Part shown: positions 56,429 through 63,623 of the stretch, piece after piece
Numbering within the stretch: the first letter of the stretch is position 1
How the letters are laid out: each line of letters opens with the position of its first letter
NCBI RefSeq assembly: GCF_016728505.1
Contig: NZ_CP068159.1
Location: 1,054,001-1,118,000 of the forward strand
DNA length: 64,000 bases
Reading direction: 5' to 3'
From: Corynebacterium riegelii
Lineage (GTDB): Bacteria > Actinomycetota > Actinomycetes > Mycobacteriales > Mycobacteriaceae
Position numbers and translations under genes: made by a program
The notes under the pieces: model-generated
What the model saw: the letters and a program-made list of their open reading frames with translations, nothing else
Told to the model about the DNA's origin: nothing
The model's database searches: none

Positions 56429-58044
56429 TGAGCACCCCAGAAAATAATCCACTGCTGTCCGTCGAGGACTTGACCGTGTCCTACGGCGGCAAGGATCCGG
56501 TGGTTCAAGACGTGTCCTTTGCCGTGGAGGCCGGCAAGATTACCGCGATTGTGGGTGAGTCCGGTTCCGGTAAGACGACGTCTGCCATGGCGTCGATTGG
56601 GTTGTTGGATCCCAGCGCGCACATCCACAGCGGCACAATTCGCTTTAAGGGCGAGGACATCACCGGCGCCACCAATGCGCAGTGGCGCCAGCTTCGTGGC
56701 GTCCACATTGGCCTGGTGCCGCAGGACCCGAACAATTCGCTCAACCCATTGAAAACCATTGGCGCCTCCGTCGAGGACGGCATGGCAATCCATGGGATCG
56801 GGGATGCGGCCAGCCGCAAGGAGCGCACGCTTGCCCTGCTTGAGCGCGTGGGTATTGATGACCCGGAGCGTCGCTACGCCCAGTACCCGCACGAGCTTTC
56901 TGGCGGCATGAAGCAGCGTGTGCTGATTGCTGCGGCGGTTGCGTTGGAGCCGCAGGTGATTATTGCGGACGAGCCGACGTCTGCACTCGATGTGACCGTG
57001 CAGAAAACCATCCTGGATTTGTTGGATGAGATGCGTGCGGAGCTTGGCCTGGGCATCGTTCTGATTACCCATGACCTAGCGGTTGCGGGCGATCGCGCGG
57101 ATGACGTGGTGATTATGCAGCGCGGCCGCGTCGTTGAGCGTGGGCCTGCGGGCGAGGTGTTGGCGAACCCAACGCAGGAGTACTCCAGGCGGCTGTTGGA
57201 TAACGCGCCGTCGCTCGCGGTGGCGGATGCCTACCATCGCCCGGCCACAAGCACCGAGACGCTTTTGAGCGTTGAGGGCCTAAGCAAGCAGTTCGGCGAC
57301 TTCACCGCAATCGAGGACATTTCCTTTGAGGTCAAGCGCGGATCCACCCACGCGCTGGTTGGCGGTTCCGGTTCCGGCAAGACCACCACAGGCCGTGCAA
57401 TTGCCATGTTCAACCAGCCCACGGCCGGCACCATCACCTTGGACGGCACGGACCTGACGCAGCTGACCCCGCGTGAGAAGCGCGCGATGCGTGCGCGCGT
57501 GCAGATGGTGTACCAAAACCCGTATGCGTCGCTGGATCCGAAGATGCGGATTCGTGACATTGTGGCGGAGCCCGTGCGCAACCTGCACGGGGTGAGCAAA
57601 TCCAAGAGCCTGAAGCTTGCAGAGGAGTACCTGGACCGCGTCGCACTTGACCCGTCGGTGTTTGCCCAGCGTATGCCGGCGCAGCTGTCGGGTGGCCAGC
57701 GCCAGCGTGTGGCGATTGCGCGTGCGCTGATCGTGCAGCCGGAGCTTGTGGTGCTGGATGAGGCGGTGTCTGCGCTTGATGTGACGGTGCAGGCGCAGAT
57801 TTTGGAGTTGTTGGAGCAGCTGCAGCGTGAGCTGGGCTTGACGTATGTGTTTATCTCGCATGACCTGGCGGTGGTGCGTCAGATTTCGGATACGGTGAGT
57901 GTGTTCCATCGCGGCCGCCAGGTGGAGACCGGCCCGACCGATACGGTGTTTACGCACCCGCGGCATGAGGTAACGCGTGAGTTGATTGACGCTATTCCGG
58001 GTAGCGTGTTCCGCGCCCGACAGTTAGGAGAGTTCGTTGTCTAA
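56428..58044 (+). CDS. Fused double ABC ATPase, DppD-DppF type
   Basis: A 538-residue ATPase with two complete nucleotide-binding domains. The first has Walker A GESGSGKTTSA (about 38-48), signature LSGGMKQR and Walker B VIIADEPTSALD. The second has Walker A GGSGSGKTTTG (about 309-319), signature LSGGQRQR and LVVLDEAVSALD, where Ala-Val replaces the usual Pro-Thr. It energises the two permeases. The ATG overlaps the permease stop by one base, and the stop overlaps the following gene. Confidence 0.93.
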   Translation: MSTPENNPLLSVEDLTVSYGGKDPVVQDVSFAVEAGKITAIVGESGSGKTTSAMASIGLLDPSAHIHSGTIRFKGEDITGATNAQWRQLRGVHIGLVPQDPNNSLNPLKTIGASVEDGMAIHGIGDAASRKERTLALLERVGIDDPERRYAQYPHELSGGMKQRVLIAAAVALEPQVIIADEPTSALDVTVQKTILDLLDEMRAELGLGIVLITHDLAVAGDRADDVVIMQRGRVVERGPAGEVLANPTQEYSRRLLDNAPSLAVADAYHRPATSTETLLSVEGLSKQFGDFTAIEDISFEVKRGSTHALVGGSGSGKTTTGRAIAMFNQPTAGTITLDGTDLTQLTPREKRAMRARVQMVYQNPYASLDPKMRIRDIVAEPVRNLHGVSKSKSLKLAEEYLDRVALDPSVFAQRMPAQLSGGQRQRVAIARALIVQPELVVLDEAVSALDVTVQAQILELLEQLQRELGLTYVFISHDLAVVRQISDTVSVFHRGRQVETGPTDTVFTHPRHEVTRELIDAIPGSVFRARQLGEFVV

Positions 58045-59284
58045 CATGACCAACATTATTGATGTTCTAGCTGGGGTTACGCTGCCTGAGCGCTCGGCTC
58101 GTCCGGACGCGGTGGCGAATGCTGAGCGCAGCTTTGAGGCACTGTTTGAGAGCAGTTTGCTTATCGACGTCCCCGTTAACCACCGCTACGCCACCGCCGC
58201 CTTCATCGCCGGTATTTCTGGCGACGCCTGCGCGTTTGACTTCTACGCCGACCTTTTGAGTGATGAGGACGAGGCGTTGGTAGACGTCGTCGCCTCCGCC
58301 GTGGAGGTGGGCCGTTCCACCGGCCCGTATTCAGGTGGGGACTTCGTTCTCTTTGGTGGTGCTGAGGGTGTTGATGGGCTGGATGCAAAGCTTGCCGCCG
58401 CGTTCGACTTCGCGCACCTGTTGACCTTCCACCCGAAGGACGCCTCACCTGCCGCGATCGGTCACCTGCAGGAGGCGGGCTACACGGAAACCGGCATCGT
58501 GTCGCTGTCCCAGCTGATCTCATTTGTGGCGTTTCAGCTGCGCGTGGCGCACGGCGTGCGTGTGCTCGCTGGTGTTTCTGGTGACGCTGGTGTTTCTGGT
58601 GACGCAGGTGTTTCTGGTGCTTCGGTAGAAGCACCCGCGCGTGCTGTGGGTGTTGCGGATCCGGGCTGGGCGCCGACGTCGGCAACCCTGCAGCCCGAGG
58701 TTGTCGCACCGACAGGCTTTGTCAACCACTCGCTGGGGTGGAAGCCGTGGGTTGCACCACTGCCGAAGGAGCAGTTCACCGAGGAGCACATTGATGCGCT
58801 GATCAAGCCTGAACGTATTGATATGGAGTACTTCCGTCTCCTGGCGCGTGACCCGGCGGCGCTGAAGGCGCGCACCTTGACGGATCTGGACATTTTCTAC
58901 AACACGGAAGGTGGCCTTGCGCGTGCGGAGCGTGAGCTGGCGGCCACGGTGGCGTCGCGGCTCAATGGGTGCGAGTACTGCGCTTCCGTCCACCAGGCGC
59001 GTGCCAAAGAAGAGGGCGGCGACGCCGAGATTATTGATCGCCTGCTTGCCGAAGGCGTAGAAACCGATCTTGGCTCCCCGCTGTGGAACGCGATCCGTGA
59101 TGCGGCTGTGGCGCTTACCCGAACCCCCTTCGCGTTTGGCAAGGCCGAGGTTGAGGCACTGCGCGCGGCTGGTCTTGATGACGTGGCGATTATTGACGTG
59201 ATCAACGCCTCCGCCTTCTTCAACTGGGCAAACCGCCTGATGCTCACCTTGGGTGCGCCGGATGTGCCGAAGCGCTTCCGCTAG
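58037..59284 (+). CDS. CMD-domain/AhpD-like fusion protein
   Basis: The 415-residue protein joins two carboxymuconolactone-decarboxylase-type domains. The N-terminal one (about 1-175) lacks a CxxC. The C-terminal one (about 225-415) has the AhpD redox centre CEYC (312-315) followed by ASVH. The linker (178-195) has three AGVSGD repeats. The two parts resemble the Avi_7170 and Avi_7169 families, separate genes in other KPN_01854-type transporter clusters. TTG 58037 is placed 6 nt after AGGAG; ATG 58046 is the alternative. It overlaps the ATPase gene by 8 nt. A peroxidatic or oxidative role on the imported compound is inference. Confidence 0.8.
   Translation: MSNMTNIIDVLAGVTLPERSARPDAVANAERSFEALFESSLLIDVPVNHRYATAAFIAGISGDACAFDFYADLLSDEDEALVDVVASAVEVGRSTGPYSGGDFVLFGGAEGVDGLDAKLAAAFDFAHLLTFHPKDASPAAIGHLQEAGYTETGIVSLSQLISFVAFQLRVAHGVRVLAGVSGDAGVSGDAGVSGASVEAPARAVGVADPGWAPTSATLQPEVVAPTGFVNHSLGWKPWVAPLPKEQFTEEHIDALIKPERIDMEYFRLLARDPAALKARTLTDLDIFYNTEGGLARAERELAATVASRLNGCEYCASVHQARAKEEGGDAEIIDRLLAEGVETDLGSPLWNAIRDAAVALTRTPFAFGKAEVEALRAAGLDDVAIIDVINASAFFNWANRLMLTLGAPDVPKRFR
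58568..58621 (+). repeat. In-frame 18-bp tandem repeat in the CMD-AhpD linker
   Basis: Three copies of GCTGGTGTTTCTGGTGAC (the third with three changes) code for AGVSGD units. It lengthens the inter-domain linker and is free to vary by slippage without a frameshift. Confidence 0.9.
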
Positions 59285-59312
59285 GCGGTTGTGGGAGCGT
59301 GATTCTGGGTGC

Positions 59313-59411
59313 GTTTCGAGCTACTCGAAACGTACTCGAAACGTACTCGAAACGAATTTTCCTAGCTTGACCTGCGGATAACATCCTACTTGAAACGGTT
59401 TCGAGTAGAAT
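59313..59411 (+). promoter_or_regulatory. GTTTCGAGTA operator array and promoter of the AlbA-type gene
   Basis: Copies or near-copies of GTTTCGAGTA lie at 59313-59320 (truncated), 59323-59331, 59333-59342, 59344-59353 (these three in reverse) and 59398-59407. The last overlaps the -10 TAGAAT (59406-59411), which is 8 nt from the GTG start. Repression by the gene's own product is the simplest reading. Confidence 0.65.
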
Positions 59412-59419
59412 GTTGAGCT

Positions 59420-60772
59420 GTGAGTGTGCAGCGCAACTTTTCTGAGGATCCCCGCCAGCTTCTGCAGGTCCCGGAGGATCAGTGGTTTGAGCGCAAGTCC
59501 TTCCGCATTAAGCCGAAGGATTTGGCCAAGACCATTGTGGGCATGGCCAATGCTGAAGGCGGCATTATTGCCGTTGGTATTACGGACCGTGAGTTTGATG
59601 GGCGCCCAAGCGCCACGCAGGACAATGCTCTGCGACAGACGGCGTTGGACCATACCGATCCAACAGTCCGAGTGCAGATTGAGGTTTGCGGGGCAGGGGA
59701 GGGTGCGCAGGTGTATCTCTTCCATGTGCTGCCAAGTGAGCGTGTGCATTACTTAAAATCCGGCGAGTGCTATCTGCGGGTTGGCGATGAGTCTCGTCAG
59801 CTGAAGGCGGACGATATTCTTGAGCTTCGCTACACCAAGGGTGAGCAGCAGTACGACGCGACGGTCCCGCCGAGGGTTAGCGTCAGTGACCTGGATCTGG
59901 AGCTGGTCGGGGATTATGCCGAGGCGATTGGGTCATCCTCCGCGGAAGATGCCTTGAAGGCCCGGAATCTGATTGACCGCGAAGGCAAGCCGCGTACGGC
60001 AGCCATCTTGCTGTTTGGTAAAAACCCGCAAGAGTTTTTCCCTAACGCCCATATTCGGGTGCTTCGCTTTGGTGAGGATCAGCGTTTTGATGGACCAATA
60101 CCGAAACAAATCCAGGCTGCCCAAGAACTGATCGGCGGAATGCTGCCTAGCGTGCGTAGGTTGACGGGCTCGGGCCTGTTTGAGGACGAGAACCTGATTC
60201 CCCATGACGTCTGGCTTGAGGGGTTGGTCAACGCGGTGGTCCACCGCTCGTACAGCATGGCCGGGGATCATATTCGCTTTGAGATCTACCCTGGGCGTAT
60301 TGAGATCTCCAGTCCTGGGCGGTTTCTTGGGTGGGTTAACCCGCGGACGCCGGAATCGTTAGCTTGCTTTGTTCGTAACCCAATGATCGCCCGTGTAGCC
60401 AGGGAACTTCGTCTCGGTCAGGGGCTGGGGGAGGGCATCCGGCGTATGTTCGCCAGCATGCGCAGGGTGGGGTTTGCGGATCCGGTTTATACGCAAACAA
60501 GTGGCAGTGTTGTGCTTACGTTGAATGCGATTCAGCGTTTGGATCCCCAGGTCTTGCAAAGTTTGCCGCGCTACGCCGAGGAAGTGCTGACGGTGCTTGA
60601 AACAAGCGGGCGGCCGATGTCTACGGGTGAAATTGCTGAAGTGTTGGAGCTTTCCGCCCCGCCCGTGCGTCGGGCACTGCAGGCAATGCGCGACGTGCGG
60701 TTGGTGCAGTGGCGCGGAAACGGACCTCGTGATCCGCGCGCTGTTTGGTACGTCGAGGGGCCATTGCGCTAG
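59420..60772 (+). CDS. AlbA-domain ATP-binding transcriptional regulator
   Basis: A 450-residue protein of the Schlafen-AlbA_2 type. The N-terminal DNA-binding domain is about residues 15-135 (FERKSFRIKPKDLAKTIVGMANAEGGIIAVGI). A GHKL-like ATPase domain of the HATPase_c_4 class follows at about 225-370 (LEGLVNAVVHRSYSMAGDHIRFEIYPGRIEISSPGR; GQGLGEGIRRMF). A winged helix at the C-terminus ends the protein (GEIAEVLELSAPPVRRALQAM). Start GTG 59420 is supported by the -10 spacing. The operator array upstream and one copy directly after its stop suggest self-regulation. Confidence 0.82.
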   Translation: MSVQRNFSEDPRQLLQVPEDQWFERKSFRIKPKDLAKTIVGMANAEGGIIAVGITDREFDGRPSATQDNALRQTALDHTDPTVRVQIEVCGAGEGAQVYLFHVLPSERVHYLKSGECYLRVGDESRQLKADDILELRYTKGEQQYDATVPPRVSVSDLDLELVGDYAEAIGSSSAEDALKARNLIDREGKPRTAAILLFGKNPQEFFPNAHIRVLRFGEDQRFDGPIPKQIQAAQELIGGMLPSVRRLTGSGLFEDENLIPHDVWLEGLVNAVVHRSYSMAGDHIRFEIYPGRIEISSPGRFLGWVNPRTPESLACFVRNPMIARVARELRLGQGLGEGIRRMFASMRRVGFADPVYTQTSGSVVLTLNAIQRLDPQVLQSLPRYAEEVLTVLETSGRPMSTGEIAEVLELSAPPVRRALQAMRDVRLVQWRGNGPRDPRAVWYVEGPLR

Positions 60773-60775
60773 GCA

Positions 60776-60785
60776 GTTTCGAGTA
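60776..60785 (+). promoter_or_regulatory. Additional GTTTCGAGTA site after the AlbA-type gene
   Basis: An exact copy of the upstream operator lies 3 nt after the stop codon, in the gap before a convergent membrane protein gene. It may allow DNA looping over the gene or be a residue of duplication. Confidence 0.5.
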
Positions 60786-62367: not shown

Positions 62368-62503
62368 TTTCAACCTCCCTTCCGGACCAAAAGATTTCCT
62401 ACTAAAGCACCTATTGGTTGTGGAGGATACTCAACGCCTTCCACTTTGGATGCAATGTTCGAACAGGGCATACCATGGCGCATTAGACTGTGCCGCCGCA
62501 CTC

Positions 62504-62516
62504 TAGACTGTTTCGC
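62504..62516 (+). promoter_or_regulatory. -10 element of the MmeI-like gene
   Basis: TAGACT (62504-62509) lies 7 nt before the ATG at 62517, fitting a leaderless transcript. A second TAGACT is at 62484-62489. Confidence 0.45.
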
Positions 62517-63623
62517 ATGGCAAGACTAGGGCTAAAGGCGATTGGAGAGCGGGTTGCTCCGCTCGCCGGAAAAGTTGAATATGACCGAGAAATCATCTTC
62601 GATCTGCTGCTCGCATATGGGCGATCAAAAGGCAATGTCACCCGTCTACGCAACGGCAGTCTCAACATCGCCGACGACCCTGCGCATGAGGTAGGCCAGA
62701 AAAACGTGGTCTACTTTCGGGAGACCACCGGGGATCTACTAGAAGAGCTAGAAACACTCCGAGTGTCACCGACCGTGGTGAAGTACAGCCCGCGTTTTGT
62801 CATTGTGACGGACTACCAGGACATGCTGGCGTTTGACACCAAAACAACGGAGAACCGTAAGTTTCCCCTTCGGGAAATCGATCAACACTTCACCTTCTTC
62901 TTGCCGTGGGCGGGGATGGAGAAGACGCAGTACACCTCGGAATCTCATGCCGACGTTAAAGCTGCGGAGCGTATGGGCAAGCTCTTTGATGAGCTCGCTG
63001 CTGCCAACCCGGACATGATGGCTGTTGATGCATCGCGACACGGTCTGAATGTCTTTTTCACCCGACTGTTGTTCTGTTTCTTTGCGGAAGACACGGGAAT
63101 TTTTGGAGACAACCAATTCACTAATGCTGTTGCCTCGCAAACCTTAGGTGATGGATCAGATACAGACACGTTCCTGCGTGAGCTTTTCGCATCGTTGGAT
63201 ACAGTAGAACCGGCAGACAAACCTGCGTATCTTGCTGGGTTTCCGTACGTTAACGGTCGCCTTTTCCGTGAAAATGCTTTGCTCACAGTCCCGCGTTTCA
63301 CCGCAAAGGCTCGTGAAACTCTCATCGACTTGGGGACGTTGAAGTGGCAGGACATTAACCCGGATATTTTCGGTTCGATGTTCCAAGCCATCGTTACCCC
63401 GGGACAACGTTCGAACCTTGGACAGCACTACACCTCAGTGCCGAACATTCTGAAGACGATTGAACCGTTGTTCTTGGATGAGCTGAAGGAAGAATTTGAC
63501 GCGGCATATGACAGTCGGGTGAAACTCGACCGACTCCTTGACCGCATTGCAAACATCAAGGTTTTTGAAACTTTCATGCCACGACGGATACAAACGCGCG
63601 CGAACTACGATTTAGCCGCCTGA
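62517..63623 (+). pseudogene. Truncated MmeI-like (type IIL) restriction-modification gene
   Basis: The frame codes for 368 residues. The first 360 look intact, with an N-terminal nuclease/spacer region, VNVFFTRLLFCFFAEDTGIFGDN-type helical segment (seen as LNVFFTRLLFCFFAEDTG) and LGQHYTSVPNILKTIEPLFLDEL, which in MmeI-like enzymes precedes the methyltransferase. After LDRIANIKVF, where DPACGSGNF is expected, the protein reads ETFMPRRIQTRANYDLAA and stops. The SAM-binding, catalytic and specificity domains are therefore missing, about two thirds of the usual enzyme. A leaderless start with a good -10 remains. Confidence 0.75.

What the first reader, a model, noticed from the sequence alone, without database searches (positions are those of the whole stretch)
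59313..60785. Operator array GTTTCGAGTA around an AlbA/ATPase regulator
Five full or partial copies precede the gene, one overlapping its -10, and a sixth exact copy lies 3 nt after its stop. The protein has an AlbA-type DNA-binding domain, an ATPase domain and a winged helix. Spacing of the three central copies is 11 bp, one helical turn, so several molecules could bind on the same face. Sites on both sides of the gene suggest looping. This is a compact self-controlled unit, perhaps the sensor part of a defence or stress system, next to XRE-ImmA and restriction genes.
Basis: partly seen in the sequence, partly recalled or inferred. Interest (0 to 1): 0.62.

Follow-up and report, generated by a model that had tools for sequence, protein, structure and literature searches.

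The report
Repeat-flanked Schlafen-type defence gene unit
The repeated motif is real, and it is one end of a small one-gene unit, probably an anti-virus gene, that relatives carry between two copies of the same repeat and that comes and goes in bacterial genomes; the copy in this window is a damaged remnant.

Summary
In detail: four exact and one single-mismatch copy of GTTTCGAGTA precede the gene, one overlaps its -10, and one exact copy follows the stop. The regulator reading is only part of it. In 24 of 30 loci in the genus the array stands on both sides of the gene as a long direct repeat. Fifteen of 151 genomes hold the strict palindrome without the gene beside it, inside one or more repeats, in several cases at the site that a sister species fills with repeat-gene-repeat. 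One site exists empty, with one repeat, and with repeat-gene-repeat. Loci fall into about 19 contexts; the gene is also in actinophages. The protein has the bacterial Schlafen architecture (SLFN/AlbA_2, GHKL ATPase, winged helix), a class described beside BREX. In Jiangella the gene interrupts a site intact in four relatives, between two copies of a 59-bp host segment; a complete Wadjet set fills the same site in another. The window copy is decayed: its right repeat is deleted, the 'sixth copy' is the scar, and 13 codons are lost. How the unit moves is unknown.

The parts
59310..59411 (+). Left repeat of the unit: iterated CTACTCGAAA half-sites, TGACCTGCG box and palindrome; carries the promoter
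59322..59353 (-). Three exact GTTTCGAGTA copies in 11-bp steps
59368..59376 (+). TGACCTGCG box inside the repeat, role unknown
59386..59408 (.). Palindrome CTACTTGAAACGGTTTCGAGTAG, probable autoregulatory operator over the -10
59406..59411 (+). Inferred -10 (TAGAAT) of a leaderless promoter
   Evidence: sequence; same layout in many relatives; inference
59420..60772 (+). Bacterial Schlafen-type gene: SLFN/AlbA_2, GHKL ATPase, winged helix, 450 aa
   Evidence: fold of the close relative L042
60077..60084 (+). Junction of an in-frame 39-bp deletion between two GATCAGCG copies of the relative L042
60776..60785 (+). Sixth copy: scar left after deletion of the right repeat (about 100 bp present in L042)

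Best explanation
The array is the left end repeat of a one-gene, repeat-flanked insertion unit that carries a bacterial Schlafen gene (SLFN/AlbA_2, GHKL ATPase, winged helix), most likely an anti-phage gene. Shown by comparison: the unit's architecture, its patchy presence, its many sites, and the empty, single-repeat and occupied states. Inferred: the winged helix of the protein binds the CTACTNGAAA half-sites, and binding at the palindrome over the -10 limits its own transcription. Inferred: the gene is gained by insertion and lost by recombination between the two repeats, which leaves one repeat. The window holds a decayed copy: the right repeat was deleted between two half-sites, leaving the 'sixth copy', and 13 codons were lost. 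The recombination machinery is not identified.
For: Direct repeats flank the gene in 24 of 30 genus loci. In the 80 named loci, 37 of 74 eligible ones have flanking repeats against 14 of 193 control ORFs. The strict palindrome is in 30 of 151 genomes with 0 control hits; 15 lack the gene beside it. All 16 stretches fetched from those sites match the repeat model and none has a convincing gene remnant (the model was built partly from some of them). Solo and occupied loci share flanks and differ by one repeat plus the gene (L184 and L185 vs L113, L176 vs L047, L181 vs L054). One site is empty in 9 close genomes, solo in 2, occupied in 1 of those looked at. The window's site lacks repeat and gene in two more distant genomes, L166 and L167. 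About 19 contexts for 41 loci. A decayed second unit lies in tandem in L051. Left and right repeats of one locus are more alike than same-side repeats of sister loci in some pairs (0.95-0.98 vs 0.88-0.90 in L012/L013 and L018/L019). Phage copies and a viral contig with a solo repeat. Patchy: 8 of 344 other genomes of the class. Schlafen fold; SLFN-kinase-wHTH proteins reported with BREX (passages read).
Against: No recombinase domain was seen in the gene, and no short target duplication at the one site examined. Each genome has at most one copy of the gene, so this is not a proliferating element. Six of 30 genus loci lack flanking repeats, the window among them. In some sister pairs the repeats show no homogenisation. 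In other genera many loci have no flanking repeats, and where present they are mostly not the array; in several they are recognisable host sequence. Binding, RNase and anti-phage activity are untested. The third Schlafen acid is D in only 14 of 26 members. No tree was built, so the direction of change at each site is inferred.
Confidence: 0.7

Rival explanations
1. The gene is passive cargo. Defence genes are inserted at hotspots with duplication of target DNA by host recombination or another element's integrase, and the array is only an operator that was copied with the gene.
For: In Jiangella the 59-bp repeat is host DNA, single-copy in 4 relatives, doubled around the Schlafen gene in G476; a complete Wadjet set sits between the same repeats in G354, and a JetA fragment lies beside the Schlafen gene in G316. 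Repeats elsewhere overlap tRNA genes or, by motif, an integrase end. In phages the gene lies near the integrase. 'Insertion with long target duplication' is described for restriction-modification genes (passages read).
Against: In Corynebacterium the repeat belongs to the unit, not to the target: the empty sites examined hold no copy, yet 24 of 30 loci carry it at both ends.
Confidence: 0.5
2. The Schlafen-type protein itself pairs or recombines the two repeats and is the mobility factor.
For: It is the only gene between the repeats in the genus loci, the ends hold arrays of its probable binding sites, and a second, diverged unit lies in tandem at a repeat.
Against: No known recombinase or transposase domain; the two phage loci lack paired repeats.
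Confidence: 0.15
3. A local operator array with sites on both sides for looping.
For: Palindrome over the -10, 11-bp phasing, a site on each side.
Against: The downstream site is a deletion scar; repeats exist without the gene.
Confidence: 0.12
4. The repeats are a transcribed RNA antitoxin, as in type III toxin-antitoxin systems.
For: Tandem repeats before a possible toxin gene.
Against: The array lies upstream of the inferred -10, and the palindrome overlaps it; Pfam shows no toxin of that kind.
Confidence: 0.03

Closest known systems
Bacterial Schlafen proteins (SLFN RNase - minimal histidine kinase - wHTH) linked to BREX, as described in PMC12839542 (passages read), which cites bioRxiv 2025.07.24.666596 (not held, not read)
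   Same: Same three-domain order; AlbA_2 domain with acids at the first two Schlafen positions in nearly all members
   Different: That passage concerns genes beside BREX loci; here a lone gene carries its operator array on both sides as direct repeats
Insertion with long target duplication of restriction-modification genes (Nobusato et al. 2000, seen only through PMC1643837, passages read)
   Same: Direct repeats flank a defence gene and an empty site with a single copy exists (Jiangella)
   Different: In Corynebacterium the repeat is part of the unit and is absent from the empty sites examined
Mobile gene cassettes or LTR-like elements (recalled)
   Same: Single gene, repeats at both ends, solo repeats, tandem units
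   Different: No integrase or transposase domain in the gene, and no tyrosine-recombinase motif by regex in the 21 named Corynebacterium loci
Prophage-borne defence genes of mycobacteriophages (PMC9262239, passages read)
   Same: Squirty gene 31 lies two genes from a RelA/SpoT-like gene, in a region shared in part with phage Fulbright
   Different: The passages read name no defence phenotype for this gene
PDB 3lmm, DIP2311 of C. diphtheriae
   Same: Best fold match, E 2.2e-22
   Different: 583-residue chain, 18-19% identity, TM-scores of 0.35-0.44, named only 'Uncharacterized protein' in the sequence listing

Membership tests
Bacterial Schlafen (SLFN-GHKL-wHTH) | SLFN/AlbA_2 domain | tested here: met
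   PF04326 58.4 bits, cut-off 25.3; Schlafen cores in Foldseek, E about 1e-3
Bacterial Schlafen (SLFN-GHKL-wHTH) | GHKL ATPase after it | tested here: met
   PF13749 57.3 bits, cut-off 26
Bacterial Schlafen (SLFN-GHKL-wHTH) | C-terminal winged helix | tested here: met
   ArsR/MarR-type matches in fold and sequence, modest E-values; the Pfam score is just under the cut-off
Bacterial Schlafen (SLFN-GHKL-wHTH) | Three catalytic acids (positions recalled; third one aligned to SLFN14) | tested here: inconclusive
   Window has E19, E24, D56; over 26 members the first is E in 24 (2 gaps), the second D/E in 26, the third D in 14
Bacterial Schlafen (SLFN-GHKL-wHTH) | RNase and anti-phage activity | not testable with these tools
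   needs an assay
Autoregulated gene | Conserved operator-like palindrome over its own promoter | tested here: met
   40 of 80 loci vs 2 of about 4,000 windows
Autoregulated gene | Protein binds the operator | not testable with these tools
   co-variation only
DNA transposon or insertion sequence | Transposase or recombinase domain in the unit | tested here: not met
   only AlbA_2, HATPase and HTH-type matches
DNA transposon or insertion sequence | Short target duplication at an empty site | tested here: inconclusive
   none seen at the one three-state site; about 30 bp next to each junction do not align
Insertion with long target duplication | Flanking repeat is single-copy host DNA at the empty site | tested here: inconclusive
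   met in Jiangella, not met in Corynebacterium
Integron cassette | Integrase nearby | tested here: not met
   no tyrosine-recombinase motif in the 21 named Corynebacterium loci by a simple regex, flanks up to 6 kb

The most novel reading that the evidence does not exclude
A new kind of minimal mobile element: one Schlafen-ATPase-winged-helix gene between two arrays of its own binding sites, in which the protein is regulator, defence effector and the factor that pairs the ends.
Probability: 0.13. Interest if true: 0.87.

Novelty: new variant of a known kind. Interest (0 to 1): 0.6.

Why it matters
How single defence genes move between bacterial chromosomes is an open question. Here one gene family shows empty, single-repeat, occupied and tandem states that can be compared base by base, with the cis-sites named, so excision, insertion and the part of the protein in either can be tested directly. 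The Jiangella site, where a Schlafen gene and a Wadjet system are found between the same host repeats, adds a second entry to that question.

Tried and rejected
Chance or genome-wide motif: rejected. Type III toxin-antitoxin RNA repeats: rejected as least likely (array upstream of the inferred -10). Link to the XRE-ImmA and type IIG genes: rejected for this locus, since they have no match in L042. Domain-specific co-variation of motif and protein: inconclusive; all four parts correlate (0.37-0.47), partial values were 0.14 (AlbA), 0.02 (middle part), 0.23 (HATPase) and 0.19 (winged helix), so shared descent is not excluded. Integrase in the Corynebacterium loci: not found by regex. Other cargo between array repeats in the genus: none seen with the strict pattern (two repeats without the gene lie only 630 and 264 bp apart, L175 and L183). 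The ancestral-type palindrome in viral contigs gave 56 stretches; I recognised only Squirty by its contig name and did not study the rest. The 31 viral relatives were not studied one by one. A PADLOC match of the window protein to a pAgo model (residues 34-372) was not pursued. Papers: no account of this unit was found; the library lacks most subscription journals and bioRxiv.

Full report
What was checked. The motif is present as described. Four exact copies and one single-mismatch copy precede the gene, and an exact copy lies 3 nt after its stop. At one mismatch the window has 6 sites against 1.40 expected, all of them here. In the whole 2.52-Mb genome there are 9 exact copies, 5 of them here; the control pattern has 5. 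The two copies nearest the gene form the palindrome CTACTTGAAACGGTTTCGAGTAG, whose end overlaps TAGAAT, which ends 8 nt before a GTG start; from this I infer a leaderless promoter. The organism is very probably a Corynebacterium: the closest named relative is Corynebacterium sp. HMSC29G08 (L042), 92% identical over 7.4 kb. No taxonomy look-up was made.

The gene. Pfam gives SLFN_AlbA_2 and HATPase_c_4 well over cut-off and several helix-turn-helix models just under it. An AlphaFold model of the L042 protein (mean pLDDT 86.3, pTM 0.73) matches PDB 3lmm best (E 2.2e-22) and then Schlafen cores at E about 1e-3. The window protein has acids at all three Schlafen catalytic positions (E19, E24, D56; the human positions are recalled, the third aligned through SLFN14), but over 26 members the third is D in only 14. 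A 2026 paper describes Schlafen RNases fused to a minimal histidine kinase and a winged helix as widespread beside BREX loci, and cites a preprint on bacterial Schlafens in anti-phage defence (passages read; preprint not held). So the protein is of a known architecture.

Repeats on both sides. A search of 151 genus genomes gave 36 with a match at E<=1e-20. Six of these (G049, G089, G116, G127, G128, G129) have only matches of 39% identity or less, which I set aside as paralogues; the other 30 are loci L001-L030. In 24 of these 30 a direct repeat flanks the gene; in a second measurement the paired parts were 79-179 bp and 77-100% identical. The six without are L001 (the window), L006, L007, L026, L029 and L030; the last two are the most diverged. 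The repeat is the array itself: iterated half-sites (CTACTCGAAA; in other lineages CTACTAGAAA, CTACTTGAAA, CTACTGGAAA, CTACTTGATAG, CTACTCTAAA), in most a TGACCTGCG-like box, then the palindrome. In the 80 named loci, 37 of 74 with enough flank have flanking repeats against 14 of 193 control ORFs in the same loci, and 40 of 80 have the start palindrome against 2 of about 4,000 control windows.

Repeats without the gene. The strict palindrome occurs in 30 of 151 genomes and the control pattern in none. Fifteen of the 30 carry the gene beside it; 15 do not (G002, G004, G007, G022, G038, G039, G042, G049, G052, G064, G077, G100, G111, G128, G129). G050 has both a gene locus and a second site. All 16 solo stretches match the repeat profile, L178 only in part, and L175, L177 and L183 hold more than one repeat; none has a convincing gene remnant. 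Two weak hits of 26-32 residues (E 0.03-0.06) were read as noise, and the profile was built partly from some of these sequences. Where a sister species holds the gene at the same site, the solo locus equals the occupied one minus the gene and one repeat: L184 and L185 against L113 (overlap 109 bp, flanks 94-95% over 2.5 kb each side), L176 against L047 (91 bp), L181 against L054 (98 bp), with looser cases L178, L174, L182 and L186.

Empty sites. At the L113 site nine close genomes (L191-L199) have 106-119 bp between anchor sequences, no repeat and no gene. L200-L204, L206 and L207 have 75-158 bp there and no repeat match; L205 (771 bp) was not resolved. L184 and L185 have one repeat; L113 has repeat-gene-repeat, with a stop codon in its gene. 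From the spread of the empty state I infer that insertion is the derived change; no tree was built. At the window's own site, L166 and L167 (right neighbour 50-51% identical) have the two convergent neighbours with neither repeat nor gene, and four genomes have a repeat beside that neighbour without the gene (L145, L147, L148, L150). Clustering 41 loci by flanking proteins gives 19 contexts; three stretches (L180, L181, L187) could not be oriented and were left out, one cluster may be joined by paralogues, and diverged flanks could split a site.

Tandem units and homogenisation. L051 has repeat, repeat, gene, repeat and then the 5' part of a second, broken copy (75% identical over 55 residues); L049 has a 16-residue gene fragment before its left repeat. 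In sister loci L012/L013 and L018/L019 the two repeats of one locus are 0.95-0.98 identical while same-side repeats between the sisters are 0.88-0.90. Not all pairs show this: in L011/L025 and L020-L023 the values do not differ clearly. This suggests recombination between the repeats or renewed insertion in some lineages.

The window copy. Against L042 the window lacks about 100 bp after the stop, that is, the right repeat; the breakpoints overlap in the motif at 60776-60784, so the 'sixth copy' is the scar. A 39-bp in-frame deletion lies between two GATCAGCG copies. It removes residues kept in the other members of alignment A1 apart from the outgroup L029. The copy may not be functional.

Outside Corynebacterium. 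The family is patchy: 8 of 344 other genomes of the class at E<=1e-60. In several genera the flanking repeat overlaps host genes: tRNA genes in L059, L069 and L102, and by motif an integrase end in L081 and relatives. In Jiangella (12 genomes; the genus name comes from L070 and L071, which match L309 and L310) the left flank, a 59-bp segment and the right flank are contiguous in four (L318, L319, L320, L322; the segment is 76-88% identical to that of L309). The Schlafen gene sits between two copies of that segment in G476 (97% identical) and, with a longer and more diverged repeat, in G316. Three genomes have another right flank and two lack the site. In G354 the two copies enclose a complete Wadjet set (JetA-D by PADLOC). 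G316 also keeps a JetA fragment beside the Schlafen gene. So at least two kinds of defence gene use that site.

Phages. Relatives of 47% identity are in mycobacteriophage Squirty and in Gordonia phages such as Nymphadora, near the integrase, with the start palindrome but without paired repeats. Related phages hold other genes there, including HicA/HicB-like genes. A review states that cluster N phages carry lysogenically expressed genes in the central region and that some act in defence (passages read). A viral contig whose printed stretch equals solo locus L173 carries a solo repeat near genes that I read as a lysis region.

Mechanism. Shown by comparison: presence, absence and architecture. 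Inferred: binding, autoregulation, loss between the repeats, defence function. Two readings of mobility stay open: passive cargo moved by general recombination or foreign integrases, which Jiangella favours, and a unit whose own protein acts at its ends, which the Corynebacterium architecture allows. The TGACCTGCG-like box is unexplained; a strict form of it stands upstream in 8 of 21 Corynebacterium loci (0.6% of control windows) and in 7 of 60 loci of other genera and phages (1.5% of control windows).

Verdict. The interpretation as a self-contained looping regulator is too narrow: the array is an end of a repeat-flanked, patchily distributed Schlafen unit, seen here as a damaged copy.

Noticed in passing
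L332:1573-8564 (G354, Jiangella): Complete Wadjet JetA-D set between the same host-derived direct repeats that enclose the Schlafen gene in another Jiangella genome
   Followed up: partly
L310 (G316), upstream of the gene: JetA N-terminal fragment beside the Schlafen gene, perhaps a trace of an earlier Wadjet at that site
   Followed up: partly
L252:608-696: Solo repeat in a viral contig next to a terminator-like hairpin and probable lysis genes
   Followed up: partly
window 59368-59376: TGACCTGCG-like box within the repeat, enriched upstream of the gene across genera, not explained by the operator over the -10
   Followed up: partly
window 62490-63623: MmeI-type (type IIG) restriction gene that ends after 377 aa; with the XRE-ImmA gene it has no match in the closest relative L042
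   Followed up: partly
window 58037-59284: Fusion of the TIGR04029 and TIGR04030 (CMD / alkylhydroperoxidase) domains after what looks like a peptide ABC transporter operon
   Followed up: no
L031, L032, L033, L034: Four more distant proteins matching the same query elsewhere in the window's genome (25-30% identity)
   Followed up: no
L059: About 2-kb segment between two copies of part of a tRNA-Gly gene that holds the gene, with TGTACAC sites on both sides, like integrase arm sites
   Followed up: no
L177, L183, L175: Two or more array repeats close together without the gene
   Followed up: no
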